A stretch of 64,000 nucleotides of DNA. Origin: Triplophysa rosa. Its lineage: Eukaryota > Chordata > Actinopteri > Cypriniformes > Nemacheilidae. Of the stretch, positions 9,003 through 59,689 are shown one piece after another (the stretch's first letter is position 1; the number at the start of each line of letters is the position of its first letter). The position numbers were made by a program, and so were the translations under genes. The DNA lies in assembly GCF_024868665.1 (NCBI RefSeq), contig NC_079894.1:3435426-3499425 (forward strand), written 5' to 3'. The notes beneath the pieces were generated by a model. That model was not told where the DNA came from and ran no database searches. It was given only the letters and a program-made list of their open reading frames with translations.

Positions 9003-9570
9003 TACATGACCATCCACTGGAGATTGTGATGCGGCACAGTGCTGTGGCGTTTTCCATAGGAACCCCATCTGTCGGCTCGACACAATGTCGAGAAACCGAC
9101 AGAAAGGGAACGTCTTGGTTACGGATGTAACCTCAGTTCCCTGATAGAGGGAGCGAGACGTTGTGTCTTTCTTGCAACAACGCTGGCCACCCGCCACAGC
9201 GGTCGAGGGATGCTCAGGCTCTTCAGACCAAAAGGTGAATGAATGCAGCACACCGTCCCCCTTTTATACCCGGATATCCAGGGGCGGAGTCCGGCATGCA
9301 AATTTCATATGCCTTTTCTTAGCTTTCCTGTAGCTCAGTGGTAAGAGCATTGCGTTAACAACGCAAGGATGTGGGTTCGATCCCAGGGATTGCACATGCC
9401 TATGCATAAATGTATAGGATAAAGCAATGTAAGTCACTTTGGATAAAAGCGTCTGCCAAATGCATAAATGTAAATGTAAAATGTTTTCTAAACTAGTCAG
9501 AAGTTGATAGGTTCTCAAGAGCGAACCCCATCTCTCGGCTCGACACAACGTCAGAACAGGGGGAACATAT
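9003..9570. mobile_element. DIRS terminal-region fragment interrupted by a SINE
   Basis: Shares the signature of the DIRS ends elsewhere in the window (GAACCCCATCTGTCGG-type block at about 9053-9110, then the TTACGGATGTAACCTC block and GAGACGTTGTGTC). The right flank resumes after the SINE at 9484 and ends near 9567. No DIRS coding region remains. Confidence 0.65.
9323..9483 (+). mobile_element. tRNA-Val-derived SINE
   Basis: The head has a Pol III A box (TAGCTCAGTGG) and B box (GGTTCGATCCC) around an AAC anticodon loop; the tail is the fish SINE/LINE-type GGATAAAAGCGTCTGCC followed by TAAATGTAAATG repeats. It is flanked by TTTTCTTA (9315-9322) and TTTTCTAA (9484-9491), a near-perfect 8-bp target duplication inside a DIRS terminus. 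Confidence 0.85.
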
Positions 9571-12135: not shown

Positions 12136-12959
12136 TATGTGAAATGAGGACATGACTGCAGCTGGCCATGAGGCCCAAACCAGCATGTCCAGTGCAAAAA
12201 GGCTTTGACTTTTTAATTCTACTTAACATTATTTTATTTATCTGTTATATTGAAGAGACCTTTTTGAAGGATTTGGTTTACTTATGAGCACTTGAGCTTA
12301 AATGAGACTTAGGGTGTTTGTAATGACGTAGGTTATGGTGTCGACCATGATTTGTTGCAATTTTGAGGTGTTCAGTCTTATTATGATTTAAGAAAATAAA
12401 TGCGATTGCTCTCCTCACGAATCACTGTTTCTTGTTTTTCACTGACAGTGTCTCTTAAGTGTTGAGGACTAGTGCTGCTTTGAGCCTACATTCAGTATGA
12501 GTAAAATACTCAAGTACTGTTAAAATCAGATACTCAAAGATGTCAGAATGGTAAGGGGAAGAACCCAAGCGCAGGCAGGCAGTGAAGGGGTTAAACAAGA
12601 TATATTTATTTACAACAGAACAAGACAAAACAAAAACCCACGATGGGGGAAAATCAACTAAGGATATATATATACACAAAACAAAAGACTTCCCACGTGG
12701 GGGCAAAATGAAAACAAGACAAAGAACTAAACTCAAGGACACGACCAAACGTCTTAAATAATATTAGGCACAAAACTCACAAAACACGAACAGACAAGGA
12801 CCAGGAACACGGGTAACCAGGAACACGGAGGACCAGGAACACGGGTAGACCAGACGGTAGCAGAACAGGGAAACAAAACGACACCATCCAACATATACCG
12901 TAAACCACCTAACGAGCAACAGTGGACATAGGTACAATGAGAAAATATTGATGGAAGTA

Positions 12960-13720
12960 TGTGGGATATTTTTCAGATAAAAGTATGATTTAAATATCAA
13001 TATAATCAATAAGTGTTTTCTTTCATTTGTTTCATTGGGCTGTGTGGTTTTGTCGTGTGCTTTCTGTTTCGCTGGTGGGGGGTTGCTGTGGCAGGCAGGG
13101 AGAACAGAGAAAGTTGGGGTTGGAGTCATAAATTATCTAGATAAACACACACACACAAAGAGTTATAAAGAAAAGAAATAATATGAATCAATCCACTCAT
13201 ATGTTTTAAGTATAATCATGAGTTGTGATGTGTTTTAATGAATCATAGGATTAAGAAACAACGCTATATAATTAAAAACATTAGATGATTGAGTGTTTTC
13301 TTTTTACTAAAGAATGTTAGAATGTTGGTATTTGTCGGCCACAGAGACTGTTTTTAGGAGACCACTCCTTGGGGGAGGGTGTCCCTGGAGAACATTCCTC
13401 AATACTAGCGACTGACCACAGGATGTATGTTTTGAGAAGGTTTTATTTTTCAGGAACTAAGCAGATAAACGTGGCGTATGGTGATTGGTGGAAAGGGAGC
13501 AAAAAGCAGAGGAGGAGTCAGAAGATAGAGCGACGTCACATACTTTATAAATATGGGTGTATTTGAATATTTTGGTTGTTGGCTGTTGGAGAGATTGTGG
13601 AGAGCAACTGACAACCCAAAGCTTTGTTATTCTTTGAAATCTGATTAATAAACTTCAGTTTTGAACTTAAAAGTTTCTCTTCGAATTTTGAACATGCAGG
13701 ACTGCCTCTAAATTGTAACA
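12960..13720 (+). repeat. ERV-1 5' LTR
   Basis: TGTGGGATATT...AACA, about 760 bp, matched by the 3' copy at 19841-20587 with small indels. Contains a TATAAATATGG box near 13545 and an AATAAAC-type signal near 13647. No clear primer-binding site was seen right after it. Confidence 0.85.
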
Positions 13721-16139
13721 GGTACGTGACGTGAATGTTAGCAAGATGAGCGTTTTGAGTTTTGACTCATAAGAAATCGAGAGGGATTCGAAAAAGGAAG
13801 CTACACCATAAAGTGTTCAAGGACCTGGTACTTAAGCATTCAGTAAGAAAATTTTTTGAATGAGCCGACGGAGAAGAATTTATAGAAATAGCTACGAGGT
13901 AATCAGTTTGAAGAAATATGAGAATTCAGGGTTTGGCCTCGAGTGTCTAAAGGATCTGATAAGAAATTTCTTTATATTTGGTGGCAGGATTGATATGAGC
14001 AATCATGGTGGATACCGGAATTTGCAACAAGCATTGACGATCAGTCGAGATAGAAAGCAGTTAATTATCAAACAATATCGTAGTCTGACAACAAAGCTTG
14101 TACTCTCTCGTGGAGAAGAGATAGTTTTGCACTAAAAAGTCTCTTTAATCGAAAAGTTGCACCGTGACTGCCATAAAGTCTCTTAAAACAAGTTTGGATG
14201 TGACCGACGTGATTTAAGGAATCAAGGGATTTGTGCCATTTGTACTGGTCGGAGAAATCGATGATCTTGGTTCGGATCATTGACACAAGAGTGTATTGTG
14301 AACTTATGGGAAAAGGTAGCAGGAAATGACTGTATTTTCAAATCTGAAGTGAGCATAAATGAATATGAATGAATCATCCAAAAAGAATAATAAAAGAGAA
14401 TCTGAAGTGGATCAGAGAAAGAAAGTATGAATATCGTTATTGGCTACGGTAACAAAAGACTAACTGGAGTAAAGCAGCCCGTAAGAAGCATATATATCAA
14501 GAATGGGCATAGACTAGTTGGTCGAGTCCGTATGTGGAAAATTGAGATCGACGAATATAAATGTCTTAGTCGATGTAGAGTTTGAAACGGAATTAGATGC
14601 AAATATAATACAAATGCTAACTAGTTGCTAAGTACTGTGACGTGAATGACATCACAAGTGCTATAGGCGTTTATGCGGACATCGAAGTCTTAGAGACAAC
14701 ATAGTAGGATGTGAAGAGAACAAGGAAGTTGCTGGAGGATGTATGAACAATGGACAATTTTAGCATATGTGCTTGTGAGCGGGATTTTTACAAGAACTAG
14801 TGTAAGAGCTGTGTAATGTTGAAATGACAATTTAAAATGTATGAATATTTGTCACCAGTAAGTGCATGAATGTTCTGATATGTATTGATAGCAAGAAGAC
14901 AAAAGATAAGAAGCGTGCATTAAAAGAATAACATAATGTATGGTAGCATGTATATCGATAACGTCATGGCCTGATTCAATATAAATGATAAACTATAAAT
15001 ATTGTGTGACAAGCAGACTAGAGACCATAATATAAGCAATAACATTTAAAAGTATAGGTTGTGTTGTACATAAAAAAAGTACAATTGGCAGCCTATAAAT
15101 TGCTCCATAAAGGCAAGAAGATAGAAGAGACAAAAATGTCAAAGGGTGTGTGTGCAGAACCACCTCCTTATGTGACCTCTAAGGTCAAATTACCCTAACT
15201 CACAGGAGTTGTAAAAGTTTCTGGAGTTAAGAGATGAAAGACAGATGGGGCCATGTACGACCAAAGAGCAGACAGTAAGGATAGCATAGGAAATAAAAGT
15301 AAAAGCAAACGTTATTAAGGGCAGAGTTAAATAGGAAAATTAAGGAGATAGAAAAGTTTGTGGATAAGACATAAATAATTAAGAAAAAGCAGACCACTAG
15401 CAGGCAGAGAGACAGAGGGAGGAAGGGAAAAAGAGCCATCATTTGATGAAGGAAGGAAGGTGTCACAGGAAATAGATCATTTTAAACCACGGACTGAGAA
15501 ACCTTTATTTTGAAATAAAGATACAGTTTCCAAGAGACCCTATGTGTTCTGGGCCACATCAGACCTTGAGAGGCTAATGGTCACTCTTCCCCTGACATGC
15601 ACAAAGCGGCTGGGAATTGGATTAAGGTGGTATTAGCAAAACAAGGGCAAACTTTCACATCAGAAATTGACAGAGATGTGGACTCTCATTACATGAGTGG
15701 GATTATTTTGATGCACGTGACGCAAGCACTGCATGCTGAATTTCAAGCCATAGAGGACCCTAAGGACACAAAAAGAAAAAAAGGGGAACAGCTTTGAGAA
15801 AGAGAAAACCCAAAGACACACGCCCAGAGACATTAAAACAGAGACTTAAACTCCATGGCACATCTGAGTGAAGTTCTTGGCACCATGTGATTCAAGGCTC
15901 AATAAGAAAATGGATGGGAACAATGAGATATTGGACAGCCTGAACAGAAAAGACTGCCCCCACCAGTCCATGAAACAGCAGCCTGAGGGTGAAAGGGAAA
16001 GGTGATAGTAGACTTTTGAGGTCCAGGTCAAAGCCCAATAAAACCATTACAGAAAAAAAAAAACAAGGATATGTGGAAAGCCCAGTGTAAATATATAAAA
16101 AAAATAAACGAGATGTGACCAACCTTTCCTTATATCAAA
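13721..16139 (+). pseudogene. gag: ERV-1 leader and degenerate gag region
   Basis: No convincing gag domain or zinc knuckle can be read. Short ORFs (13860-14135, 15597-15797) are present but unrecognised. The location between LTR and protease remnant implies leader plus decayed gag. Called by position only. Confidence 0.35.
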
Positions 16140-16420
16140 TCAGACTCGTATTAATCTGTTAGAAAGAGATGCATTGTGTAAATTGGGTCTTCAAATTTGG
16201 CGTTCTACATAAGTATATATAGACATAGACATGAAAGAAACTCAACTGATGATCACTGTGCCAAAAGCAAGCGTGTAAAGGATAGGACAGATAGAGAAAG
16301 ATGTAAGACAAGCAGTTGATAAATGGGCTAAATTCATTGAAACTCAGATTTCTATAGCACAGTTACCGAAATCGGAATTCCACTGTACAATGATAGATGA
16401 CCCCGTGAGAAATTCAAATC
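16140..16420 (+). pseudogene. pro: ERV-1 protease end and PR-RT linker remnant
   Basis: Reads as NLLERDALCKLGLQIW, the closing part of a retroviral protease that also occurs in ERV-2 (NLLGRDALCKLK). About 200 bp on comes FHCTMIDDP, matching PHCTMIYDP of ERV-2. Frames are broken between them. The RT catalytic domain that should follow is absent: the sequence moves within about 200 bp to the post-RT connection. Confidence 0.65.
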
Positions 16421-16535
16421 ATAATAGGTAAACAAGGAACAGCTATAAAATAACTGAGAATGAATTATAAACAAATGGTTCAGCGTAGCAAATTCTGTAC
16501 TAGAAATACTGTATATCCTTATATGTAGGGAAAAA

Positions 16536-19079
16536 TTGGGAAACAACAGATCTAGAACTGATGATGAAAAAAAAAAAAAAATTGCACAAAACCAACCAAG
16601 TGAAAGACATGTTGTCATTTTAGGCCTCACAGGATTTAGCAGACATTACATCCCTATGTATGTCTCACTAACTGCACCCTTGAGACAATTAATCAAAGAA
16701 CAGGGAATGAAGAATCTGAAAGCAGAACTTCAATGGACACAAGAGGCTGAACGGACGTTCATTGACCTCAAGACACAACTGGCACATGCCATGCATCTAA
16801 ATTGTGCTAACTATGATCTACCTTTTTTCCTAGATGCCTCAGAATCTGGCACCAGTGCGCATGGTGTGCTCTTTCAGAGAGACCTGGGTAAGAGGAAAAT
16901 ATTGATGTACGCCAGTGTACTACTCGATTGTGTAGAACAAAGACAACCACTTTGTTCTCGTTTTGCAGCCGGCTTGGCTAAAGTAGTGCATAAAACCGAA
17001 CATATTGTCATGGGTTATCCGTTAACAATTTTGACCACACATTCCATCATGTCATTTGTTAATTCATCATCCTTTACGTTTTCACCATTGAGACAGAGAA
17101 GGATATCCAAAGTTTTGTCCAGCCCAAATCTCACATATACACATGAAGGTATTAATATGGCTGATCTGATGGGAGATGGACAGCCACATGATTGTGCACC
17201 CATCACTGAGAAAGCATCAAAAGTAAGGGAAGATCTGTCCGCGGTGCCATTGACAACCCCACCGAAAGTTATGACATTGTTCACAGATGGTTGTTGTTTC
17301 AGAGCAGAGGATGGAAGTCTGAAGGCAGCCTATGCAGTAGTGGAACAGGTGGGAAGCTCATTAGTGACAAGAGATGCAGGGAAGTTGAAAGGGAAACAGT
17401 CAGCACAGAGAGCAGAGATGATGGCAGTGACAAGAGCCTTGTACTATGCTGGTGAGAATCGTGTGAACATATACTCTGATTCTGCATATGTTGTTACAGC
17501 TGTACATGTTGAATTGCCCTTATGGCAGAGATGTGGTTTCCTTACATCTAATGGTCGACCAATTACACATGCATGTGAAGCCAGAGACCTTTTAGAGGCT
17601 CTGATGATACCCAAGGAAGTGGCAGTAATTAAGTGTTCAGGTCACTCCAAAAGTGACTGTCCCATCACTGATGGTAACAATGCAGCTGATCTGGCTGCCA
17701 AAACTGAAGCTGGCTATGTGCCAACTCAGCAGGTGCTGAGATCTGAGAGAGCTTGTAGTGATCTTTTGCCAAGATTCACTAGAGAATATCTGATAAAGGA
17801 ACAACAGATATCTAGTCCGGAAGAACAATCAGTTTGGTCACAGCATGGAGGCATCTGTGCTAGTGATGGTCTATGGCAAGCACCAGACGGACGTCCGGCA
17901 TTGCCTGTGTCACTGTCCCGCTCAATGTTAAAACAAGCTCATGGTCTCAGCCATGTCAATGATAAACAGATGATGCGTGCTCTTGAACATTGGTGGCATC
18001 CATTTTTGCAATCAATGGTGTCAGGTCACGTGACAAGTTGTTCTATCTGTCAGGAACATAATGTGAAACCCAGTATCAAACCAAAGAAAGGTTCATATCC
18101 TTTGACATCAGGCCCAGGGGAGGAAATTGTGATTGATTTCACGGACATGATCACAAAAGTACATGGTAAATGCTATGTTTTGGTGATTGTTGATTATTTC
18201 ACTGGTTGGCCTGAAGCATATCCTGTCGGCCGAGAGGACAGTACGGCCGTGATAAAGTGTCTAATCAACCATTACATTCCACATTATGGGTTCCCCAGAC
18301 GTGTCAGATCAGATAACGGCACTCACTTTAAAAATGACCATTTGAGGGTTGTTGAACAGGCTCTAGGCCTCACGCATGCGTACGGAGCAGTCCATCATGC
18401 GGAAAGCCAAGGTAAGGTTGAGAGATTGAACTTAACGTTAAAACTAAAATTGGCTAAAATCTGTGCACAGACAAAATTGAACTGGTTATCTGCATTGCCA
18501 ATTGTTTTCATGTCCATCCGTTCTTTTGTTAACAGGATCTCAGGATTTACACCCTTTGAATTGATTACAGGTCGTCAATTTCCAGGTCATAGTACGGCGT
18601 TGAGAGAAGACACCGTGCAACCATTGTCTCATACTGTGTATTTTGATAAACTAACAGATATGATTCGAACCTTTTCCCATCAGGTGACTCCTGTACCAGC
18701 GCAACCCAAGGAACTGCAATCACCAGTCACAACAGACTGGGTCAGGATCAGAAAATTCCGCAGAAAGTGGAATGAACCAAGGTGGTCTCAACCTATACGT
18801 GTGACAGCTGGCACCTCAAATTGTTTGCAACTAAAAGGCAAAGGAGACAATTGGTTCGATTTAACATCCTGTGTAGCTTGTGACCCAAGTTCTAGGTCTC
18901 TTGCTGACACTGGTTTGGACCTGAGAGGACTCAGGTCCAAGAGAGGGAGGATACACAGAGTGGGAACGGTAACACAGACACTGAAATTGCTATTGAACAA
19001 CACCAACAGCTCCAAATTATACACAAAACAGGTGACATTTTCACAAGTCCACACACAGAACCATTGGCTCACTGTGTAA
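16536..19079 (+). CDS. pol: ERV-1 pol: RT connection, RNase H, integrase
   Basis: An 847-codon open frame. The first 28 or so residues are not pol. From LGLTGFSRHYIPMY it shows the RT thumb/connection, then RNase H from about residue 250 (FTDGCC, AEMMAV, YSDSAYV). The integrase HHCC zinc site is at about 470-515 (HGLSHVN, CSICQEHN), and the core has IDFTDM (about 533), SDNGTHF (about 593) and GKVERLN (about 629), giving the D-35-E spacing. The RT catalytic core with its YxDD is missing, so this cannot be a complete polymerase. The RNase H has a retroviral, not gypsy, character. The last 60 codons overlap the macrodomain frame, which lies in the -1 register. Confidence 0.88.
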   Translation: MGNNRSRTDDEKKKKIAQNQPSERHVVILGLTGFSRHYIPMYVSLTAPLRQLIKEQGMKNLKAELQWTQEAERTFIDLKTQLAHAMHLNCANYDLPFFLDASESGTSAHGVLFQRDLGKRKILMYASVLLDCVEQRQPLCSRFAAGLAKVVHKTEHIVMGYPLTILTTHSIMSFVNSSSFTFSPLRQRRISKVLSSPNLTYTHEGINMADLMGDGQPHDCAPITEKASKVREDLSAVPLTTPPKVMTLFTDGCCFRAEDGSLKAAYAVVEQVGSSLVTRDAGKLKGKQSAQRAEMMAVTRALYYAGENRVNIYSDSAYVVTAVHVELPLWQRCGFLTSNGRPITHACEARDLLEALMIPKEVAVIKCSGHSKSDCPITDGNNAADLAAKTEAGYVPTQQVLRSERACSDLLPRFTREYLIKEQQISSPEEQSVWSQHGGICASDGLWQAPDGRPALPVSLSRSMLKQAHGLSHVNDKQMMRALEHWWHPFLQSMVSGHVTSCSICQEHNVKPSIKPKKGSYPLTSGPGEEIVIDFTDMITKVHGKCYVLVIVDYFTGWPEAYPVGREDSTAVIKCLINHYIPHYGFPRRVRSDNGTHFKNDHLRVVEQALGLTHAYGAVHHAESQGKVERLNLTLKLKLAKICAQTKLNWLSALPIVFMSIRSFVNRISGFTPFELITGRQFPGHSTALREDTVQPLSHTVYFDKLTDMIRTFSHQVTPVPAQPKELQSPVTTDWVRIRKFRRKWNEPRWSQPIRVTAGTSNCLQLKGKGDNWFDLTSCVACDPSSRSLADTGLDLRGLRSKRGRIHRVGTVTQTLKLLLNNTNSSKLYTKQVTFSQVHTQNHWLTV

Positions 19080-19411
19080 GTGCTGACTGTGCATACGGAG
19101 CAGGTATAGCTAAACAGTTCAAACAACGATACGGTACACAGAAAGTAATTGATCAAAATAAACAACCAGGTGAATGTGCAGTGACTAAAGAAGAAGACGG
19201 CAGAATTATTTTTCACCTAATAACAAAGAACAATCACTGATTTACCAACTATGACTGTTTCACAAAAAGCCTAAAACACATGAGAGATTGGTGTGTGGCT
19301 ATAGAGTAAAAGAGTCTCGTACCCCGGCTGGGGTGTGGTCTTGATAAACTAGACTTTAAGAAAGTGCAAAAGATTCTGAGTGAAGTGTTCACGGAGTGGA
19401 CATACAAATAA
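18908..19411 (+). pseudogene. OARD1/TARG1-like macrodomain carried by ERV-1
   Basis: In the frame -1 to pol, open from 18908 and read to TAA at 19409-19411, lies a macrodomain resembling OARD1/TARG1, the cellular enzyme that removes ADP-ribose from acidic residues. The segments GDIFTSP (from 19031), LAHCVSAD, GAGIAKQFKQ, HLITK and RLGCGLDKL come in family order and spacing. Human TARG1 uses Lys84 (in its LITK) and Asp125 (in GCGLD) for catalysis; both equivalents are present. Two in-frame stops, TGA at 19238-19240 and TAA at 19307-19309, break it. No Met precedes the domain, so splicing or frameshifting would have been needed. It occupies the usual env position. Confidence 0.85.
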
Positions 19412-19840
19412 CCATTTATTCCTTATAATCAAGTTTTCATTATTGTGTGATTTTGAGTGTTTTTCAATGTTTTTCAATTTTCAGGTTTAACAGTGTATTT
19501 TTAAGAAGTGTTTTCTTACAGGTTTTAAGGTATTAGTTTTTAAGAAGTGTTGATTTGTAAAGATAACAAGACATTACTAGAGAGGGTGAATATAACAGCA
19601 ACAAGATGAAACTGTGGGAAAATGGAGTTGTTTGTGTTTAGGATAATTGCAGGACCATCGTAGGGATAATTTTGGAATACAAAAAGTAAGGAAGGAATAG
19701 ACCGGATGACCCGATAGAATGTGCAATAGAAAGTACACATAAAAGAAGAATCATTACAGTATGCTGATTATAAGTAGAATACATTGGAGAAGATGAAAAA
19801 CATGATTTGTGTGACCTCTTTCGAGGTCAAGAGAGGGAAT
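19412..19840 (+). other. ERV-1 3' noncoding region and polypurine tract
   Basis: AT-rich with no frame; ends in the purine tract GAGGTCAAGAGAGGGAAT (19823-19840) directly before the 3' LTR. Confidence 0.7.
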
Positions 19841-20587
19841 TGTGGGAATATTTTTAGATAAAAGTATGATTTAAATATCAATATAATCAATAAGTGTTTT
19901 CTTTCATTTGTTTCATTGCTGTGTGTTTTGTCTGTGCTTTCTTTTCCTCGTGGGGGTTCTGGGCACAGAGAACAGAAAAGTTGGGGTTGGAGTCTAAATT
20001 ATCTAGATAAACACACACACAAAAGAGTTAAAAGAAAAAAATAATATGAATCAATCCACTGATATGTTCTAAGTATAATCATGAGTTGTGATGTGTTTTA
20101 ATGAATCATAGGATTAAGAAACAACGCTATATAATTAAAAACATTAGATGATTGAGTGTTTTCTTTTTACTAAAAGAATGTTAAGAATGTTGGTATGTTG
20201 TCCGGCCACAATGGACTGTTTTTAGGAGACCACTCCTTGGGGAGGGTGTCCCTGGAGAACATTCCTCAATACTAGCGACTGACCACAGGATGTATGTTTT
20301 GAGAAGGTTTTATTTTTCAGGAACTAAGCAGATAAACGTGGCGTATGGTATTGGTGGAAAGGGAGACAAAAAGCAGAGGAGGAGTCAGAAGATAGAGCGA
20401 CGTCACATACTTTATAAATATGGGTGTATTTGAATATTTTGGTTGTTGGCTGTTGGAGAGATTGTGGAGAGCAACTGACAACCCAAAGCTTTGTTATTCT
20501 TTGAAATCTGATTAATAAACTTCAGTTTTGAACTTAAAAGTTTCTCTTCGAATTTTGAACATGCAGGACTGCCTCTAAAGTCCAACA
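19841..20587 (+). repeat. ERV-1 3' LTR
   Basis: Direct repeat of 12960-13720, differing mainly by short indels in the region near 19915-20040. Ends TCCAACA. Confidence 0.85.
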
Positions 20588-20945
20588 GTATAAATAGAGA
20601 AGACAAACGAGGGATAACGAGCAGGGCAGGTGTAGAACATCAAACACTTAGGGAAGGATAACGAGGAAACGAGAGGAATGGGGCCAATGACAAGACACTG
20701 GAGAGAACGTATATTATTGTCAAACGGACAATAATATGTTTCTCTCCACACATAACCAAAGACTTTGTCATGGCTCTGCTACAGGACCAAGAAAAACATG
20801 ACTAAGGAAGCAGAGCCATGACACAAAGACTTTTACTCAAGTCGTTTTGGAATTGGTGACTTGTAACTTGTAATGGAGTAATTTTCACTGCAAGGTATCT
20901 GTACTTTTACTTAAGTATGGTTTTCAGGTACTCTTTACACCTCTG

Positions 20946-22198
20946 TATTCTATATATAGAATCGGATACTTGCGAGCTCTGTGCTGGACCAATATCCGTA
21001 TGCGCGTGTAGAGATGGAATTGTTCAAAAGATTTCAGAATGCATTCCAGCTGGAAAGTTCCGGGCCTCGTGATCGGCTGCATGGCTTAGCCAGGTGTACA
21101 TGGCAGCAGAAGTACATTGTTCCTTCTGTCTCCAAAGAGACGCATATTGTATGTGTGGAGGGTTTTGTATGTGGGTATGTCTGTCTTTTCACCTTTTTCT
21201 TGTTTTTACAGGTACAACTTTAATTGTTTTGCTTATAGTCAATATGTCTCATGTACAGCTGCTTTGTAACAATGAGGGTAACACTTTACAATAACAGTAC
21301 ATAAATGATCATGTACCAATGTTCAAACTAAGTGTTACTTTATTATGAACTAATGATGATTTAAGGCATGTACTAATCAAGAATTAATCTTAACTACAAC
21401 ATGAGTCACACGAATTCATGTGTGAATAACGGCTACCTTAATTACATGTTAGTACATGTTTGTTAATTAATGTATTAATTAACACTGGGCTATGTTAAAT
21501 GTAACTTGTTCCATGAGAAAGAAAATTAATTAAAAGTGCCCTATTTAAAATACATAACAAACACCTTTGGATGGCGCAAACAATTTTTTGTGCCTTTACC
21601 ATCTCTAAATCTGTAAATTCAACAACACACAACCCTGTACAGTTTCACTTGTTATTATTGCCATTTTCTGTACATTATTCTTATTTTATATATGCAATTG
21701 TTTTAAGAATCTTTTTAAACTGTAAATCTTTATTATAATTTGTCTTGTCATTGTGTTGAATGTGTGTACTAGAAGCTTTCAACACCAAAGAAAATTGCCT
21801 GGCAAGCACACCTGGCAATAAAGCTCTTCTGATTCTGCCAATAATAAACACCTGTTTTGCATGATTATTCCTACTTTTATTCATACCCACCTTGACTGGT
21901 TATGGTAGACTGGGTCCCAAGGCACTGGTCCATTGACCTCAAGGGTGAAGTACAACGTGTAGTAACATGTATTCATGAAGCAGGCACTACTTCCAAACTA
22001 CAAATCAGTTTTAGCCTACAGATGATGGTTTTCTTAGTATTGATCAGGCCCCCTGTCTATAATAAACAGTCTAAACATAGGCACATCTGCTTTGCTCTTT
22101 AACTTGACAAACCATCAATTGGTACTCAATGATAAGTGATTATGATGAGCTGAATATGTGTAGTAAATGTGTAATTGATAACTTTACAATGATGCCTT
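20946..22198. other. L2 3'-UTR scrap and AT-rich sequence
   Basis: 21165-21275 matches the 3' UTR of the L2 copies at 35285-35405 and 47165-47290 (TTTTTACAGGTACAACTTTAATTG). From 21277 a GGGTAACACTTTACAATAAC block may be a terminus of a further transposon, possibly the Merlin element on its right. No gene. Confidence 0.5.
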
Positions 22199-22430
22199 AA
22201 CAAGTCAGTAGTTCATGTTGGTCTATGAGTAGTTAAGCATGAGTTAATAATAATGTGCCCCTCCAAGTAAAGTCATGACATAACAATGCATTAACAAGTC
22301 ACGAGTTCATGTTGGTCTATGAGTAGTTAAGCAAGAGTTAATAATAATGTGCCCCTCCAAGTAAAGTCATAATATAACGATGCATTAACAAGTCACGAGT
22401 TCATGTTGGTCTATGAGTAGTTACCAGTAG
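22199..22430. repeat. 94-bp tandem repeat, about 2.5 copies
   Basis: Units start AACAAGTCA at 22199, 22293 and 22387; the copies share TTCATGTTGGTCTATGAG. Confidence 0.9.
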
Positions 22431-33879: not shown

Positions 33880-35456
33880 CCAACACCTGTAAAATTGCGT
33901 TTTTCCATCTTAAGAATATATCTAAACTACGTCATATGCTGTCAATGTCAGATGCAGAGAAGTTAATTCATGCATTCATGACATCAAGACTAGACTACTG
34001 TAATGCACTGTTAGGTGGTTGCCCTGCAGGCTTATTACAAAAACTCCAATTGGTCCAAAACGCGGCAGCTCGAGTTCTTACACGTACAAAAAAGTATGAA
34101 CATATTAGCCCGGTTCTGTCAACCTTGCACTGGTTACCTATAAAGCATCGCGTTAACTTTAAAATCTTGCTTATTACCTATAAAGCCTTACATGGTTTAG
34201 CTCCTCAGTACTTGAATGAACTCCTTTTGTATTACAGTCCTTCACGTGCATTACGCTCTCAGGCGTCCTGTCAGTTGGTAATACCTAGAATTTCAAAATC
34301 AAGTGCAGGTGGTAGATCCTTTTCCTATCTAGCGCCTAAACTTTGGAATAGTCTTCCCTGCACTGTCCGGGAGGCAGACACACTCTGTCAGTTTAAATCT
34401 AGACTAAAGACGCATCTTTTTAATCTTGCATACACTAATCTTCCATAATATAAATCTTCAGAGGGTTTAGGCTGCATTAGTTAGATCAACCGGAACCAAA
34501 AACACAACTGATGTACTTGTTGCATCAAAGAGTACAGAACAGTACTCTACTCTCAGCCAGTCTTGTCTCATTGTTCCAAGGTTACCACAGCGAGCAGGAT
34601 GCAGTTCATGGCCTGACCTGATGGTGGAGCGGAGAATGGGAAGTGGGGACCTGACAAGAGCTGAGATGATAGAGCTGGATAAAGAAGGACGCGGTCTCTT
34701 GACATGTCTTCACCACAAAATTTCAAATGCTATTAGATTATTAATGATAATCTTAAACTATAATTTATTTTATTATTAAGTTTATTTATTTTATTTAGCC
34801 TTGTTGTGCAAGTTCTGTGGAGCTTGTGCAGAGGCAGCAGCTTTTGCCAGAGGGGAACTGGAATCTCCTGGTTGGGCCTGGGTTCTCCTGAGGTTTTTTT
34901 TCTCGATTAGAGTTTTGGGTTCCTCGCCACCGTTTGCATACTGTTTTTGCACTATCTGCCTGACCGGGGGGGCTGCTTTAGAATTTTAAAGTTTTACTTA
35001 ATTAATATTGCATATAGGAATTTATTATCTGTTATATTTGACCTGTGCTTCGCTCTCCTTTATCCTAAATGTGTGCTCTCACTGAGCGTGTGTGTGTGTG
35101 TGTGTGCGCACTTGTCTGTGTACGTACGTGTGTGTGTGTGTGTTGTGTGTGTGTGTGTGCGTGCGTGCGCATCCGTGTGTGTGTGTGTTGTGTGTGTGTG
35201 CGTGCGCATCCGTGTGTGTGTGTGTCTCTGTGTCTGTGTGTGTTGGTGCGTGTGCGTGTTGTGTGTTGTGTGTTGTGTGTGTGGAGTGTTTTGTGTGTGG
35301 GTGTGTCTGTCTTCTGTGTTTTCAACCTTTTCTTGTTTTTGCAGGTACAACTTTGATTGTTTTGCTTGTAGTCAATGTGTCTCATGTGCAGCTGCTTTGT
35401 AACAATGAAAATTGTAAAAGCGCTATATAAATAAAGTTGAGTTGAGTTGAGTTGAG
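33880..35456 (+). mobile_element. L2-type LINE, 5'-truncated, (TTGAG)n tail
   Basis: Carries the RT C-terminal region and 3' UTR and ends ...ATAAATAAAGTTGAG repeated. The 3' UTR holds a large GT-rich tract (about 35086-35290). Its right end abuts the duplicated segment. Confidence 0.85.
33936..34448 (+). pseudogene. L2 LINE RT C-terminal domain
   Basis: 170 codons: LIHAFMTSRLDYCNALLGG, LQLVQNAAARVLTRT, LHWLPIKHRVNFKILL and APKLWNSLP, the conserved C-terminal block of L2/CR1-group ORF2. It ends naturally at a stop, then 3' UTR. The catalytic RT and endonuclease are missing upstream. Confidence 0.88.
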
Positions 35457-35564
35457 GTAACATGAGGACTTGGTCTTGCATGCCCAATATACTGAACAGG
35501 CGCATTGCAAATATTACCGTAGAGTGCACAGACTTTCCTTGAAATAAAGTTTGAATAGACTCAC

Positions 35565-35678
35565 CTGTAAATGAATGAAAGCCATGACGACAAGCTGAGT
35601 TTTGATCTCTCTAAGAGAGATCCGATTCTCACTGTTCGGCTGGTTTTCTTACCCCGATGACTTTTATGTCTGCACATC
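35565..35678 (-). pseudogene. Merlin copy 2, exon 2 (end of zinc ribbon)
   Basis: Acceptor TATCATAG and donor GTGAGT bound 114 bp. Spliced to exon 1 in phase, it completes the zinc ribbon: W at the junction, then MCRHKSHRGKKTSRTVRIGS and LLERSKLSLSSWLSFIY, matching the ISXO2/Merlin R-x-GS-x-[FL]-E-x-S pattern. No further exon is present because the segment ends at 35457. Confidence 0.8.
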
Positions 35679-35776
35679 CTATGATAGCAAAAAAGTTTAT
35701 AAAAATATAGTAAACAATAAGTAAAACATCCACTGCGTCAATCATGAACATTTTCATAATAAACATTAATATTATA

Positions 35777-36209
35777 TGTGACCCTGGACAACAAAACCAT
35801 CTTAAGTAGCACGGGAACATTTTTAGTAATCGGCAAAAATACATGGTATGGGTAAAAATTAACGATTTTTCTTTTTGCCAAAAACCAATAGGATATTAAG
35901 TAAAGATCATGTTCCATGAAGATATTTTATAAATTTCCTACTGTATATGTATAAAAACATTATTTTTGTGAGTGGATGGCCTGCTACAGTGCCTCAGATT
36001 AACAACTTCAAAGGCGATTTTCTCAGTATTTTGATTTTTTTGCACCCTCAGATTCCAGCATTGTAAATAGTTGTTGTTCCGCCAGATAGTGTCCTATCCT
36101 AACAAACCATATATCAATAGAAAGCTTATTTCTCCAGCTATCAGATGATGTAAAAATCTCAATTTCTAAAAATTGACCCTTAAGACTGGTTTTGTCGTCC
36201 AGGGTCACA
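35777..36209. mobile_element. MITE, TGTGACCCTGGAC termini, TATA duplication
   Basis: 433 bp with about 30-bp inverted ends (TGTGACCCTGGACAACAAAA and inverse), flanked by TATA at 35773-35776 and 36210-36213. Lies in the Merlin copy 2 intron. Second copy at 42502-42934. Confidence 0.9.
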
Positions 36210-36500
36210 TATAGTAAAAGGTGCAGCTGCATAATATTCCTAGATACTAAGTGTTTTTGAACCTTACTATAGTATACAGTGTTTACTACAGTTTTTAACT
36301 TACTACAAGAGCACTAACAATTTAGTACAATTTTCTATAGCAATTACTAAATTGTTCAAGTTAACCGGACTTTTATTTTGACGGGTTGTCGGGAAGACGC
36401 TTGAGTTTAAGTGTGTTTGATGATTGCATCTTCACTCAAACAGTAAATTGCTGCTGGTGAAATCATTTTTCAGAGCAACTCTGGAGACGAAGTTCATGTG

Positions 36501-37046
36501 TGTCATGAATGGTGGGTGGTGAGAGACACGGAGACAAGGACAGAGGACCCAAGTGCAGACAGCGGGTAAGGGATTAACACAAATTTTAATAAATAATAAG
36601 CAACAAAACAAAGACCCACGTGGGGGTAAAGTAACAAACATGGAAACAGGAACAAGACTAACTAAACTAACAGGACTAGACTAAAACACATGACAACTAC
36701 AAAGTAAACTAACTCAAAGACAGGAACTCACCACATTACACAAACATGACACAGTACACGCACAACAAACGTAGTACAATACACGAGCACAGGACAAAGA
36801 AACAAGAGGGTATATATAGGTAAGACAAACGAGGGATAACGACATGGGGCAGGTGTAGAACATCAAACACTCAGGGAAAGATAACGAGGAAACGAGATGG
36901 CGGGAACAGAGACGAGACACTGGAGAGAATGTATATTATTGTCAAAAAGACAATAATATGTTTCTCTCCACACATAACCAAAGGCTTTGCCATGGCTCTG
37001 CTACAGGACCAAGACAGACATGACTAAATGAAGCAGAGCCATGACA
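36501..37046 (-). repeat. Solo LTR (TGTCATG family), ATGTG duplication
   Basis: TGTCATGAATGG...GCCATGACA, 546 bp, flanked by perfect ATGTG (36496-36500, 37047-37051), which identifies it as a solo LTR. TATATA and polyadenylation-type sequence read on the minus strand. Second copy at 43226-43771. Confidence 0.9.
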
Positions 37047-37544
37047 ATGTGTTTATATCCTGATACGGTGCCGACGCACATAAATCCATGGGTGTCACGC
37101 GTGTAGCACGTTAAAGTGTGTTGTGCATTCACTCCGACACTCAGAACAGACAGATGACACATTTAAATAACATGATTCCGCGACTGCGAGTCTGCATCTA
37201 GATAAGTGGACTCAATGCAACACACAAACAAGCACCAACTACAAGCAGCTCAGTCTAAAATGCACCTGCCAAACTGTTTTACATGCGTGCTACACTGGCT
37301 AATTTATTCTTAGCACAGACCGTGAGTTGCTACACTGCAACTCGCTGAAAAAGTATTTTAACTACTAAAAAAGCATAAAATCATATAATTTCGATATAAA
37401 CAATATTGGCTCATCATGCTTGGCTTTGGGAAAACAAATACATATCCCCAAATCTCAATACACCGCCCAGGCCCAGTAAAAGGTAGTAAAACGATATCGT
37501 TTTCAAAAAAAGAAATTACATTTTTCTTAGAAAACAAAACTCAC

Positions 37545-37720
37545 CAATGAAACATATCGTAATTTCTATGATTTCTCATCAATTTCATGCCATGGCCACA
37601 TCTTGAGCACGTTACTGTGCTTGCCAGTAACTGTTTGCTTTGAAGCCATTTAATGAGCTTGAGATTCCTTTTAGGAGATGGTTTCTTAGTCGCAAAAAGC
37701 AATAATTTTGTCAACAACAT
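37545..37720 (-). pseudogene. Merlin copy 2, exon 1 (start and first half of zinc ribbon)
   Basis: An ATG at 37718-37720 opens a frame with KKPSPKRNLKLIKWLQSKQLL and CSRCGHGMKLMRN, the N-terminal region and CxxC of ISXO2/Merlin transposases, ending at a GTGAGT donor (37539-37544). Exon 2 lies 1.9 kb downstream beyond a solo LTR and a MITE. A TTTTCGCGCGCC sequence about 50 bp upstream of the ATG (37772-37789) resembles an E2F site. Exons 1 and 2 have no stop, but the DDE exons are lost. Confidence 0.78.
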
Positions 37721-37986
37721 TGTTAGCGCTCCTCTTTATCACATGACTTTCCTTGGAAAGTACTTACTTGGGCGCGCGAAAATCCCGCCACCACCATATG
37801 CCCCACCTAGTGTTGGGAATTGAGGCTCATTTTATGGATTGGGATCATTTGATGCAGCTAAACTAAGAGCCCGAAATTGCACTGAAGATATTCGTGTTTG
37901 AGTGACCATGAACATTAAGCCACTAAATGGATTTTCTGTGCGTTATTATTATTAAAAAAGAAAGAAAACAGAAAGAAATAATTTAC

Positions 37987-38016
37987 TCTAAGATGTGAGC
38001 TGACTCACATCTTAGA
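37987..38016 (+). other. 13-bp stem-loop just upstream of ERV-2 gag frame
   Basis: TCTAAGATGTGAG, loop CTGA, then the perfect inverse, ending 9 bp before the ORF at 38026. Present in both duplicate copies (44712-44741). Confidence 0.8.
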
Positions 38017-38025
38017 TATAGGAGG

Positions 38026-38901
38026 ATGATGTGGCAGGAGTTGAGGAAGGAATTTCCCAACCGCATTGATCCTCGAACACTCAAGGGAGAACAGATGGGA
38101 GAGGATGAGAACCCAGCCACCTACGTACAAAGACAGCTAAGAAAATGGAAGCAAGAACTGGAAAGAGATCCTGAAGGGGACCTGGTGATGGCAGCACTGT
38201 TCAGAAATGCCATGATTGACTCTATGCCGCCTCCGGTAAAAGAAAGATTGGAGGACGTAGTGGGTCTGAACTCAAAGTCACACAAGGAGTTCTGTGATCA
38301 TGTGACCAATGCTGTAGAGCAGTACAGAAAGAGCGAGCAGAAACTGAAAAACCAAGAGAAAGAACTTCAAAGAAAGCTGGTACAGCTGCAGCTTGAAGAA
38401 CTGGCCAGAAAGAATAAGACGCAAGCCGTGGTCAAAGACAAAGACAAAGAAGAAGACTATGCAGCAATGATGGCTCCAGTAAATGCTCCAGCACTTATGA
38501 CACAGCAACCTGGCATAGGAGCCACTGCACAACAAGCACCCGGAAGTGGACCACAACAGCCAGCGCCTATTGTCATCTACGTAAAGCCTGAACAGCAAAA
38601 CAGATTTGGGCCAAGGCCTATGCAAAGAGGACAAGGAAGACCTAACCAGGGAAGAAACCCATGCTGGGGATGTGGGCAACCAGGACACAACAGAAGGGAG
38701 TGTCCTACTAACCCATGGAACACAGACCAGCAACAAGGTTCTCGATGGCAGGCAAACCGCCAACAGCAAACACAATGGCAGGGTCAAGGACAACAAGAAC
38801 AACAAGGACCTCATTGGCAAGACCAACAGAATCAACCCTGGCAGAATCAACAGCAGCAGGGACCGGTCAATCCATGGCGAGGTCCAGATGTTGGCTACTA
38901 G
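38026..38901 (+). CDS. gag: ERV-2 gag, capsid C-terminus and nucleocapsid
   Basis: Structural polyprotein part. 291 codons from ATGATG. It opens with a capsid-like helical segment (RIDPRTLKGEQMGEDENPA) followed by a lysine/glutamate-rich coiled coil (about residues 85-130). One C-x2-C-x4-H-x4-C zinc knuckle starts at Cys213 (CWGCGQPGHNRREC), and a Q/W-rich tail follows. Matrix and most of the capsid are missing upstream and no 5' LTR was found. It ends in TAG (38899-38901), after which the same frame runs on into the protease, as in gammaretroviral gag-pol readthrough. An antisense 219-codon frame is a shadow. Confidence 0.88.
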   Translation: MMWQELRKEFPNRIDPRTLKGEQMGEDENPATYVQRQLRKWKQELERDPEGDLVMAALFRNAMIDSMPPPVKERLEDVVGLNSKSHKEFCDHVTNAVEQYRKSEQKLKNQEKELQRKLVQLQLEELARKNKTQAVVKDKDKEEDYAAMMAPVNAPALMTQQPGIGATAQQAPGSGPQQPAPIVIYVKPEQQNRFGPRPMQRGQGRPNQGRNPCWGCGQPGHNRRECPTNPWNTDQQQGSRWQANRQQQTQWQGQGQQEQQGPHWQDQQNQPWQNQQQQGPVNPWRGPDVGY

Positions 38902-39710
38902 GGCTGCCCAGAAGTTCCTACTGGGAGGGGTCAGCATCCAATGATAACTGAGAATGCTGATACAGAACCTATGCTGCAGATTAAGATTGAAGGCAAGATC
39001 ACACCAATGATGATAGACACTGGAGCAGCATACACATGTATAAATTCAGAATATGCCTCACACCTCCCAATGTCTGGAAAATTCACAAAGACATTAGGAT
39101 TTTCGGGAAAAACGCAGCTAATTCCAATAACAGCTCCAGTTTGTCTAAGGACCAAGGACAAAGAAGTAACATTGCCCATTTTAGTATCAGAACAACCCCT
39201 GTTAATCTGTTAGGAAGAGATGCCCTCTGCAAGTTAAAGATACAACTACTATGTTCCCCAGAAGGTATTTACATTGAAAGCAAGGGAGTCAGACAAATGG
39301 TAATCACAACCCCCCAAGCTAATGCTTACTAGTTAGGAAATTTAGAGGAAGAGGTAGGGAAGACATTACAAAAATGGGAAAAGTTTATTAAGGAACAAAT
39401 CGAAGAGCCCAAATTACCCGAATTAGAACCCCACTGTACCATGATCTATGACCCATTACGCAGAGTAGACATAGAAAAAAGATGGTTACAAGAAACCAAA
39501 GACATAGAAGTTCCCCTTGTTTCACAGCATATAATCATAGGCCCACAAGGAGCAGCATTACAAGTTGATGAGAATGATTTTATTAAGAAATGGTTCCAGG
39601 TCCCAAACTCAGTTCCCCATATCACACTATATTTAGAGAAGGATAGTGAGTCTAAGGAAATAGGCCCAATGATGAAAAAAGCTAAAGGACTACAATGGAA
39701 AAACACAGAT
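38902..39710 (+). pseudogene. pro: ERV-2 protease and PR-RT linker with two H-x-T motifs
   Basis: In the gag frame after TAG: MMIDTGAAYTCI (aspartic protease D-T-G) to about 39195, then a frameshift to NLLGRDALCKLK and a TAG at 39330-39332. The same register continues with PHCTMIYDP and, about 60 residues on, VPHITLYLE, then GPMMKKA. The two H-x-T motifs recall the HxT/S pair of 2H phosphoesterases. Spacing is 62 residues, shorter than the usual 80 or so, so this is only a hypothesis. The frame is then broken by a fold-back insertion at 39711. Confidence 0.75.
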
Positions 39711-39790
39711 GTAGCGAGGAAGGCGGGGCCGGTGGCGTGAGTGATAATGGGTATCAACTGTACGCCACCGGCCCCGCCTTCCTCGCTACA
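39711..39790. mobile_element. 80-bp fold-back insertion in pol, ACAGAT duplication
   Basis: Two perfect 28-bp inverted arms (39711-39738, 39762-39789), very GC-rich, separated by a 23-nt loop. Flanked by ACAGAT at 39705-39710 and 39791-39796. Reading frames on the two sides differ by the 86 nt added (insert plus duplicated ACAGAT). No family is recognised. Confidence 0.85.
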
Positions 39791-39796
39791 ACAGAT

Positions 39797-41275
39797 AATC
39801 CCTTAATATTTTTATCAGCAGACAAACAATTTATGAAGATTGCATGTGCCACAATTATGCAGGGAACTCCTAGAGAGGTGGATGTCAATGGTCAAAGAAA
39901 AATGAATTTGGAAAAGATCTTAGAAAAAGAGATAAAACAAACAGAACTTCTCAAAGAAATGGAGCACTTGGTTCCTGATCAATTGTGGTCAAAACATGAC
40001 ACAGATGTAGGGCTGATAAAATCTGCCAGCCCTATAATTATCAAAGCAAAACCGGGAACTAAGCTACCTAACAAGTACCAATATCCATTGAAACCTGAAG
40101 CAATAAATGGCATCAGGGAAACCATAGATGGACTGATTACAGCAGGAGTGCTGCTCAAAACATCTAGTCCTTGTAATTCTCCTATACTGCCCGTTACCAA
40201 AGCAGACAAAAATGGCGTTTGGTACATGACTTAAGGGCAGTCAATGAAATAATGGAAGATTGGCCAGTAGAAGTTCTGAATCCTCACACCCTGCTCACAA
40301 ATGTGCCGCCTGATGCAAAATATTTTACAGTAATTGATCTTTGTTCTGCTTTTTTCAGCAATCCATTGGCTGAGAGCAGCAGGCACTTGTTTGCCTTCAC
40401 GTATGAGGGGACTCAGATATCCTACACTAGAGTCCCTCAAGGGTTCCGCCATAGCCCCCACATATTCAATCAGCTATTAAAAGCTGACTTGGAAGATCTG
40501 GTATTGGATAGCACTCTTCTGCAGTATGTTGATGATTTGTTAATTTGCACACCTACACTTGAACAATGTCACAGAGATTCTATTAAGGTACTAACCAAAC
40601 TAGCAGAAGGAGGACATAAAGCCTCAAAGGCAAAGTTACAGTATTGCCTTCCCCAAGTAGAGTACTTGGGAAGATTGATTGCATATAAAACCAAGGCAAT
40701 ATCACAAAGTCAATTAGAGGGAATTAGCAAGGTTCCACTGCCACAGACTGTTGGTCATATGATGACATTCCTGGGCATGACTGGGTTCAGCTCAGACTGG
40801 ATAGAGGACTATGCTATAAAAACTGCCCCCTTGAGAGCCCTAATGAAGCAGGCAGGACAACAAAATTTAAGAGCCCCACTTACATGGAATAGTGATGCAA
40901 CAATGGCATTTGAGTCTATTAAGAGAGAACTGCAAAGTGCTCCAGCTCTGACCAGCCCTGACTATACGAAACCTTTTCACCTGTATGTAGCTAACAGAAA
41001 AGAGGGATCTCTGCAGTGTTGATGCAAGAAACTTGTAAGGGAAGGGGAAAACAGCCATTGCCTTTAATAGCACAAAACTGGATAGTGTAGCACAGGGATA
41101 TCCCCCTTGTTATCAAGGACTCGCTGCTGTATATTATGCTTATGAGAAAGCTTCTACTTTGACTATGGGGTACCCTGTGACTATATATGCGCATCACAAG
41201 GTGGTTGAAATGTTGGAGCAGGGCAGATTTGTTTTGACACAGGCCAGATCCCTGTGCTCATGAAGGACTTACAAT
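39797..41275 (+). pseudogene. pol: ERV-2 reverse transcriptase
   Basis: RT from IIIKAKPGTKLPNKYQYPL; NSPILPVTKADKNG, then a stop after WYMT and a frame change to DLRAVNEIMEDWPVEV. FTVIDLCSAFFSNP (first catalytic Asp), RVPQGFRHSPHIFNQ and YVDDLLICTP (catalytic YxDD) follow, then the thumb with FLGMTGFS. After 41022 the connection domain continues in shifted frames to about 41265. RNase H is absent: integrase follows at once. Confidence 0.88.
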
Positions 41276-41291
41276 TGCGCCGCATGCCCTA

Positions 41292-41620
41292 TTGGCTGTA
41301 TTAATTTCAGAGACACATGGGTTTGATCATTGCGGTCGAAATGAGATACTTCAAAAGATCAAGCAACAAGGATATTGGTCACCTTATTTGCAAGCAACAG
41401 TGGATGATTACCTAACAGGATGTGACATTTGTGCTCAGAACAATGTTACGAAAGGAACTTCAGCACCCATAGGACACATCCCTGTACCTGAGGGACCTTT
41501 TAAACACTTAGTAATGGATTATGTTGACATGATCAAATCAGTCAGAGGAAAAAGATACATGTTGGTGATTACAGACAGATTCAGCAGATGGGTGGAAGCT
41601 GTGCCATCAGCAGACCAGGG
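41292..41620 (+). pseudogene. pol: ERV-2 integrase N-terminus and start of core
   Basis: HHCC zinc-binding site (HGFDHCG, CDICAQNN) followed by VMDYVDMIKSVRGKRY (first catalytic Asp) and TDRFSRWVEAVP. The second D and the E are missing because the sequence switches to an L2 5' end near 41620. Confidence 0.82.
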
Positions 41621-42181
41621 CTCTGGGACTGCTCTGAACACGAACGTCCTAAAGACGTCCTGCTTCCTGTTTCCTGTTTCCTGCATCGCTGCCGGCAGCT
41701 TGTTTGTATCAGTGCGCTTCCCACTTCGCTCTAATATTAGTGTATTTTATTATCGTTAATTATTATTGTCGTTGCTAACTTATCCTGATATCTCAATAAC
41801 CCTGTTCCTGTTATTTACTTGGAAGAGTCTAAACCAAATGTGATAGTTAACTTAACGCCGTTAGCATAGCAATAGCGTGTTAGCTTGCTTTCTGTTCACA
41901 CTGTGGAATATCATCTTGCCTCTGGTTTGTCTTGTGTGCTAACTGTTTCTCTTTTTAAGCGAGTATACTACGATCCATCGAGCAACCTTGGTAAGTTGGA
42001 ATTGCACTTCAAATCCGGTGAGTTATGGCTTCTATTCCTATTATTGTTACTTGCACCTCATGTCATATGTTTAGCTTAGCCTTCTCTGTCAGCTGCGAGG
42101 GCTTTATATGCGATAAATGCAGGGAAATAGTTAGGCTGACAGAGAAGATCTTAGAATTAGAGTCTCGCATCCAATCCTTAT
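41620..42181 (+). mobile_element. L2-type LINE 5' end with ORF1 start
   Basis: A 5'-UTR-like stretch, then an ORF from 42025 (MASIPIIVTCTSCHMF) with two CxxC pairs (CTSC, CDKC) and a coiled-coil start (EIVRLTEKILELESRI), typical of the zinc-finger/coiled-coil ORF1 of some fish LINEs. It is cut at 42181 by copy 2 of the duplicated segment. Confidence 0.6.
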
Positions 42182-42289
42182 GTAACATGAGGACTTGGTC
42201 TTGCATGCCCAATATACTGAACAGGCGCATTGCAAATATTACCGTAGAGTGCACAGACTTTCCTTGAAATAAAGTTTGAATAGACTCAC

Positions 42290-42403
42290 CTGTAAATGAA
42301 TGAAAGCCATGACGACAAGCTGAGTTTTGATCTCTCTAAGAGAGATCCGATTCTCACTGTTCGGCTGGTTTTCTTACCCCGATGACTTTTATGTCTGCAC
42401 ATC
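42290..42403 (-). pseudogene. Merlin exon 2, duplicate copy
   Basis: Same as 35565-35678 at offset 6,725; no difference seen. Confidence 0.78.
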
Positions 42404-42501
42404 CTATGATAGCAAAAAAGTTTATAAAAATATAGTAAACAATAAGTAAAACATCCACTGCGTCAATCATGAACATTTTCATAATAAACATTAATATTAT
42501 A

Positions 42502-53910: not shown

Positions 53911-53943
53911 CCCCCACCCATAAACATAAAACATACAATGTTT

Positions 53944-58863: not shown

Positions 58864-58867
58864 ATTC

Positions 58868-59676: not shown

Positions 59677-59689
59677 CTTACACATCTTC

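What the first reader, a model, noticed from the sequence alone, without database searches (positions are those of the whole stretch)
18908..19411. A TARG1/OARD1-like macrodomain in the env position of an endogenous retrovirus
Directly after pol, in the -1 frame and before the 3' LTR, the sequence encodes macrodomain segments in order: GDIFTSP, LAHCVSAD, GAGIAKQFKQ, HLITK and RLGCGLDKL. The residues equivalent to the TARG1 catalytic Lys84 and Asp125 are both present despite two later stops. Macrodomains that reverse ADP-ribosylation are known antiviral countermeasures in RNA viruses with positive-strand genomes. I do not know of a described retrovirus carrying a TARG1-type domain. Capture from a host transcript is the simplest inference.
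Basis: partly seen in the sequence, partly recalled or inferred. Interest (0 to 1): 0.92.

Follow-up and report, generated by a model that had tools for sequence, protein, structure and literature searches.

The report
TARG1 macrodomain fused to retroviral integrase
A broken retrovirus copy in what is likely a loach genome carries, right behind its integrase, a domain related to the human enzyme TARG1; relatives in other carp-order fishes encode it whole in one reading frame with integrase, where it would likely strip off ADP-ribose tags used in antiviral defence.

Summary
Searched as separate pieces, 18908-19237 and 19310-19408 match human TARG1/OARD1 (E 3.6e-18 and 2.6e-4), with the Lys84 and Asp125 equivalents present. 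It is not a local OARD1 retrocopy. Of 120 listed (of 144) relatives of this pol, 11 of the best 12 carry the macrodomain in one protein with integrase; a profile finds it in none of the other 108. On an integrase tree the 12 macrodomain rows (window included) stand as one group against 84 without it (SH-aLRT 100). The 21 retroviral macrodomains used form one clade (100/100) against host OARD1, so one capture is likely; the donor is unresolved. In fusion proteins the domain is about as conserved as the integrase C-terminal part (77% against 79%), the linker less (55%), and Lys84/Asp125 are nearly always kept. So it is better described as a C-terminal part of Pol than as a gene in the env position; this copy is frame-shifted and stopped. 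Most likely it is a Pol-delivered ADP-ribosyl hydrolase; activity is untested. Macro-domain ORFs in fish retroviruses were already reported (Basta 2009, known here only through a review), so this is a new member of a known kind.

The parts
12960..13720 (+). 5' LTR (TGTGGG...AACA)
   Evidence: 97.7% identical to the 3' LTR, gaps not counted
16123..16197 (+). possible protease remnant (weak)
   Evidence: 25 aa at 52% to the end of the protease region of P0040, E 0.005; no match to the reverse transcriptase domain that should follow
16464..19079 (+). open reading frame: RNase H and integrase part of pol
   Evidence: 88.6% identical to Triplophysa rosa polyprotein P0023 over 16620-18926
18908..19015 (+). 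integrase-macrodomain linker (holds the ...QVQERE... motif), here in the -1 frame to pol
19016..19408 (+). TARG1/OARD1-type macrodomain, broken by two stops and without the last strand seen in relatives
19226..19228 (+). codon equivalent to TARG1 Lys84 (catalytic)
   Evidence: numbering checked
19343..19345 (+). codon equivalent to TARG1 Asp125 (catalytic)
   Evidence: numbering checked
19412..19840 (+). stretch up to the 3' LTR; no plus-strand ORF of 40 aa or more from ATG/GTG/TTG, no env match, purine-rich tract at about 19830-19839
19841..20587 (+). 3' LTR

Best explanation
The window holds a broken provirus, likely of a loach, whose pol gene is followed by a TARG1/OARD1-type macrodomain that intact relatives encode in one reading frame with integrase, and which would likely act as a Pol-delivered enzyme that removes ADP-ribose placed by host antiviral PARPs. 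Shown by the calls: the TARG1-type sequence (window and relatives) and predicted fold (a relative), the fusion to integrase in relatives, its restriction to one group on the integrase tree, the near-complete conservation of Lys84 and Asp125, and conservation close to that of integrase with a much faster linker. Inferred: one capture of a host OARD1 transcript, joined at the old Pol C-terminus; packaging in the virion at Pol amounts; hydrolase activity; and that its targets are ADP-ribosylated proteins or nucleic-acid ends of the incoming virus. In this copy the gene is dead (frame offset, two stops, last strand gone), and no reverse transcriptase domain was found.
For: PDB sequence matches to TARG1 (intact relative P0010 E 8.3e-39). 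AlphaFold model of P0010 (mean pLDDT 86) best matches TARG1 structures: E 3.6e-17, TM 0.93 by target, rmsd 1.6. Macrodomain behind integrase in one protein in 11 of the 12 best pol relatives; the profile finds none in the other 108 listed. Integrase tree: 12 macrodomain rows against 84 without, one change, SH-aLRT 100. Macrodomain tree: 21 retroviral rows one clade, 100/100. Of 46 proteins that I assigned to the retroviral group, 37 cover Lys84 (34 K, 2 R, 1 H) and 29 cover Asp125 (28 D, 1 N); 97 of 97 host-type proteins keep both. Mean identity over 66 pairs of 12 fusion proteins: integrase C-terminal 180 residues 79%, linker 55%, macrodomain 77%. TARG1 chemistry with Lys84, and removal of ADP-ribose from proteins and from phosphorylated DNA/RNA ends: review PMC7050489.
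Against: No activity or antiviral effect was tested. dN/dS was not computable: no related DNA could be fetched (genome search did not complete), so selection is inferred from protein conservation and intact ORFs only, and the 66 pairs are not independent. Only 6 of the 22 proteins run to the domain's last strand; the others are truncated or frame-shifted. Two proteins have Arg and one His at Lys84, one has Asn at Asp125. The donor is unresolved: trees with the retroviral clade outside vertebrate or teleost OARD1 are not rejected (p-AU 0.34 and 0.26). P0023, P0024 and P0032-P0034 are annotated gene models, which may be spliced in silico. In 4 of 66 pairs the macrodomain is not more conserved than the linker.
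Confidence: 0.6

Rival explanations
1. The fused macrodomain works with integrase in the nucleus instead of against antiviral PARPs: it reads or clears ADP-ribose at chromatin or DNA breaks, and so steers or helps integration and gap repair.
For: It follows the integrase C-terminus in all eleven pol relatives that carry it. TARG1 is found in nucleus and cytoplasm and acts on nucleic-acid ends (PMC7050489).
Against: Tethering in the precursor does not show that it stays joined after protease processing. Conserved Lys84/Asp125 speak for an eraser, not a mere reader. Nothing here tests the place of action.
Confidence: 0.2
2. It is an inert passenger: a host sequence that was fused to Pol by chance and hitch-hikes as the family copies itself.
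For: Only 6 of 22 proteins run to the last strand, and the window copy is dead.
Against: The domain is about as conserved as the integrase C-terminal part while the linker beside it is not; the catalytic pair is nearly invariant; complete versions persist in several divergent branches.
Confidence: 0.15
3. An OARD1 retrocopy was inserted locally into this one provirus.
For: In the window the domain is out of frame with pol and runs beyond its ORF.
Against: The same fusion is in 11 related Pol proteins; the window piece is 91.7% identical to the Triplophysa rosa fusion, while host-type OARD1 matches the retroviral domain at only about 40-53%.
Confidence: 0.01
4. The domain came from a bacterial DarG-type or other viral macrodomain, not from animal OARD1.
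For: DarG is the next nearest fold, and a weak NCBIfam DarG match exists for piece 3 (E 0.014).
Against: For P0010, identity to TARG1 is about 45%, to DarG about 22%; PDB E-values are 8e-39 for TARG1, 0.0012 for DarTG and 0.04 or more for the DarG macrodomains; DarG lacks the Lys/acid pair (PMC7050489).
Confidence: 0.03

Closest known systems
TARG1/OARD1 (C6orf130), ALC1-like class of ADP-ribosyl hydrolases
   Same: Sequence (about 45-47% identity for P0010), predicted fold, Lys84 and Asp125, S-x-D-C and GAGIA stretches
   Different: A domain at the end of a retroviral Pol, not a free host protein; changes shared by most copies such as I34V, F52Y, I120L
Fish epsilon-like retroviruses with macro-domain or CNPase ORFs (Basta et al. 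2009, as cited in PMC4977317)
   Same: Teleost endogenous retroviruses that carry a macro domain; a Danio sequence with the start of the domain lies in the present group (P0034)
   Different: Basta et al. could not be read, so whether they saw the TARG1 type or the in-frame fusion to integrase is unknown
Macrodomains of coronaviruses, alphaviruses and hepatitis E virus
   Same: Viral polyprotein-borne macrodomain thought to counter host PARPs (PMC7050489 section 12 passages)
   Different: Those are treated as MacroD-type (other catalytic residues, recalled); this one is TARG1-type and sits in a retroviral Pol
MacroD-like macrodomain of fish iridoviruses (Megalocytivirus)
   Same: A virus of fish with a macrodomain for which host origin was discussed (PMC7729036 passages)
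   Different: A DNA virus (recalled) and MacroD-like, so an independent gain

Membership tests
TARG1/OARD1 macrodomains | Best match by sequence is TARG1 | tested here: met
   window pieces 1 and 3; P0010
TARG1/OARD1 macrodomains | Catalytic Lys84 and Asp125 | tested here: met
   Window codons at 19226 and 19343; K in 34 of 37 and D in 28 of 29 retroviral proteins that cover the sites
TARG1/OARD1 macrodomains | Macro fold of TARG1 type | tested here: met
   Model of relative P0010; the window copy itself was not folded
TARG1/OARD1 macrodomains | Hydrolysis of ADP-ribose esters | not testable with these tools
   Needs a bench assay
TARG1/OARD1 macrodomains | Nested within host OARD1 by descent | tested here: inconclusive
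   The tree puts the clade among teleost genes, but alternatives are not rejected
Endogenous retrovirus / LTR provirus | Paired LTRs around gag-pol | tested here: met
   LTR pair; RNase H, integrase; gag was not recognised
Endogenous retrovirus / LTR provirus | Env gene | tested here: not met
   Three env probes gave none, none and one 15-residue chance-level match inside the provirus; a sister lineage has TLV_coat env (P0072). Env of intact relatives could not be examined
Endogenous retrovirus / LTR provirus | Target-site duplication | tested here: inconclusive
   Only GTA on both sides (12957-12959 and 20588-20590)
Epsilon-like (class I) fish retroviruses | Pol groups with epsilonretroviral Pol | not tested
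   No reference epsilonretrovirus was included; weak MLV integrase C-terminal match (E 0.003)
Macro-domain fish retroviruses of Basta et al. 2009 | Same lineage and same gene position | not testable with these tools
   Paper not held

The most novel reading that the evidence does not exclude
A retroviral lineage built an ADP-ribosyl hydrolase into its own integrase precursor, so that every virion carries an eraser at the viral DNA ends; it removes ADP-ribose caps that host PARPs put on the incoming cDNA termini or on the pre-integration complex, a countermeasure that my literature searches found described for no retrovirus.
Probability: 0.25. Interest if true: 0.88.

Novelty: new member of a known kind. 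Interest (0 to 1): 0.6.

Why it matters
If the domain is active, PARP-mediated defence would also bear on retroviruses strongly enough for them to keep an eraser inside Pol. It gives a ready test, since complete versions exist in several cypriniform lineages: whether TARG1-type chemistry, unlike the MacroD type of RNA viruses, serves in viral counter-defence or at the integration step.

Tried and rejected
Rejected: local OARD1 retrocopy; chance match; bacterial DarG origin; a separate env-position gene; programmed -1 frameshift as the normal mode of expression (the 11 pol relatives are single proteins; five of them are annotated gene models).

Led nowhere: Pfam and NCBIfam on window pieces (but for one weak DarG match); related DNA in viral contigs and genome contigs; the donor of the capture (three constrained trees, none rejected); gag in 13.7-16.1 kb (two ORFs in Pfam; N-terminal parts of four Pol relatives); promoter and terminator scan (bacterial patterns, not used). 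Not done: dN/dS, env content of intact relatives, copy number in the own genome.

Literature: 10 searches. Terms: macrodomain or macro domain with endogenous retrovirus and fish; with LTR retrotransposon and ADP-ribose; with retrovirus and integrase; with transposable element and teleost; with Appr-1-p and retrotransposon; with epsilonretrovirus or fish retrovirus; OARD1 with retrovirus; TARG1 with Lys84 and Asp125; terms for captured genes in teleost retroviruses; and Basta with teleost fish retroviruses. In the listings (in part of longer hit lists: 20 of 84, 20 of 323, 19 of 20) and the passages seen, no paper names a TARG1-type domain in a retrovirus. The library is open-licence PMC only. 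PMC4977317: passages and section 7 read. PMC7050489: passages and sections 17 and 23. PMC10499221, PMC8672886, PMC7599744, PMC9503650, PMC7729036, PMC10221186, PMC10435555: passages only. PMC6001957: term search, no hit. Basta 2009: not seen (not held). PMC7050489 prints Glu125 where the PDB sequence has Asp at 125.

Full report
Observation. Between the pol ORF and the 3' LTR of a provirus (LTRs 12960-13720 and 19841-20587, 97.7% identical over aligned bases, gaps not counted), the frame starting at 18908 reads a macrodomain with two internal stops. Pieces 1 and 3 match human TARG1/OARD1 at E 3.6e-18 and 2.6e-4, so chance is excluded. The equivalents of Lys84 and Asp125 are present. Pfam found no macro match in the pieces; it scores the relatives that it hits at 16 to 23 bits against a cut-off of 22, and misses P0009, which is cut short. 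NCBIfam gave one weak DarG match, for piece 3.

State of this copy. The pol ORF 16464-19079 holds RNase H and integrase. It is 88.6% identical to a Triplophysa rosa polyprotein over 16620-18926, and the macrodomain stretch 18926-19213 is 91.7% identical to the same protein. The N-terminal parts of four Pol relatives found no reverse transcriptase inside the provirus, and at most a weak protease remnant at 16123-16197. Env probes from three sister proteins gave none, none and one 15-residue match at E 0.05 inside the provirus. The copy is therefore defective in several genes, and the macrodomain's -1 frame is most simply a property of this copy.

Relatives. A search with residues 480-871 of the pol ORF gave 144 proteins, 120 of them listed. 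A macrodomain profile built from four relatives was run on these 120 and on the 22 proteins. Eleven of the 120 carry the macrodomain: P0023-P0029 and P0031-P0034, that is 11 of the 12 best hits (P0030 diverges before the end of integrase). The profile finds none in the other 108; two of those, P0136 and P0138, end in the linker or at the very start of the domain and are truncated kin. In all eleven the macrodomain follows the integrase C-terminus in one protein; it is cut short in P0023, P0026, P0027 and P0034. Further fusions came (for example P0006, P0009, P0144, P0146, P0148, P0152, P0155; sequences; one search listed 120 of 3749 proteins). Of the 84 scored relatives without the domain, 76 end within about 62 residues of the same integrase tail and 8 run on, P0072 into a TLV_coat env. 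The macrodomain thus appears joined at the old end of Pol (inference). Named hosts are Triplophysa rosa, T. dalaica, Misgurnus anguillicaudatus, Paramisgurnus dabryanus and Danio aesculapii. T. rosa, M. anguillicaudatus and D. aesculapii were looked up and are Cypriniformes. The window's own species is not given; its nearest rows in the tree, from Triplophysa rosa, suggest a loach.

Trees. One search used 125 proteins, dropped 11 for short overlap (five of these with the macrodomain), added the window, and scored 12 rows with the macrodomain, 84 without and 19 not scorable because integrase is cut short. With the 19 left out, the 12 form one side of a branch (SH-aLRT 100; quick tree, no bootstrap) and one change suffices; on the tree with them kept, one change also suffices for the scored rows. 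This supports one gain. In the macrodomain tree (21 retroviral and 37 host rows that I chose; two more hosts dropped for incomplete domains) the retroviral rows form one clade (100/100) on a long stem. It falls among teleost OARD1 genes, but constrained trees that put it outside vertebrate or teleost OARD1, or with Leuciscus OARD1, are not rejected (p-AU 0.34, 0.26, 0.33). So OARD1 is the source family, one origin is likely, and the donor is open.

Constraint. Aligned to human TARG1, 37 of 46 proteins that I assigned to the retroviral group cover Lys84 (34 K, 2 R, 1 H) and 29 cover Asp125 (28 D, 1 N); the 97 host-type proteins keep both. Over 66 pairs of 12 fusion proteins the mean identity is 79% for the C-terminal 180 residues of integrase, 55% for the linker and 77% for the macrodomain; in 62 of 66 pairs the macrodomain exceeds the linker (pairs are not independent). 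This fits purifying selection but is no dN/dS. Against it, only 6 of the 22 proteins run to the last strand, as decay after endogenisation would also give. The AlphaFold model of P0010 has mean pLDDT 86 and matches TARG1 structures best.

Mechanism. TARG1 uses Lys84 with an acidic partner to release ADP-ribose from Asp/Glu, and can clear phosphorylated nucleic-acid ends (PMC7050489). Placed at the end of Pol, the domain would be packaged in virions. It could then erase ADP-ribose that PARPs place on incoming viral components or DNA ends. Packaging, activity and target are inferred. The chief rival is a nuclear, integration-related role.

Novelty. PMC4977317 (section 7) states that ray-finned fish epsilon-like retroviruses can include ORFs for CNPase or macro domain proteins, citing Basta et al. 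2009, which is not held. In the listings and passages that I saw, nothing names a TARG1-type domain in a retrovirus or its fusion to integrase. I therefore file it as a new member of a known kind, with the TARG1 type, the in-frame fusion, the single group and the conserved active site as what is added here.

Noticed in passing
34461-47341: Another LTR element: repeat pair 34461-35222 and 46407-47168 (95.7%), with an internal direct repeat 35457-39681 / 42182-46406 of 4.2 kb at 99.8% identity (recent duplication, recombination or assembly artefact), and pol pieces at 39953-41624, the best 44% identical to P0023.
   Followed up: partly
53193-59677: A further LTR-like pair (53193-53911 and 58960-59677, 97.9%) around pol remnants on the minus strand at 54064-56568.
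   Followed up: no
20-574: Env-like remnant on the minus strand at the window's start, about 25% identical to the env part of P0072 and P0127.
   Followed up: no
20588-20823: The sequence directly behind the 3' LTR is about 88-89% alike to stretches at 36810, 43535 and 30840, so the provirus lies in or beside an older repeat.
   Followed up: no
22192-22423: Direct repeat of a 94-base unit.
   Followed up: no
9322-9395: tRNA-Val (AAC) predicted on the plus strand.
   Followed up: no
P0008, P0021, P0025, P0026 (database proteins): Sequences of this retrovirus family are filed under bacterial metagenome bins (Brevinema, Aeromonas, Cetobacterium, Plesiomonas), most likely host contamination.
   Followed up: no
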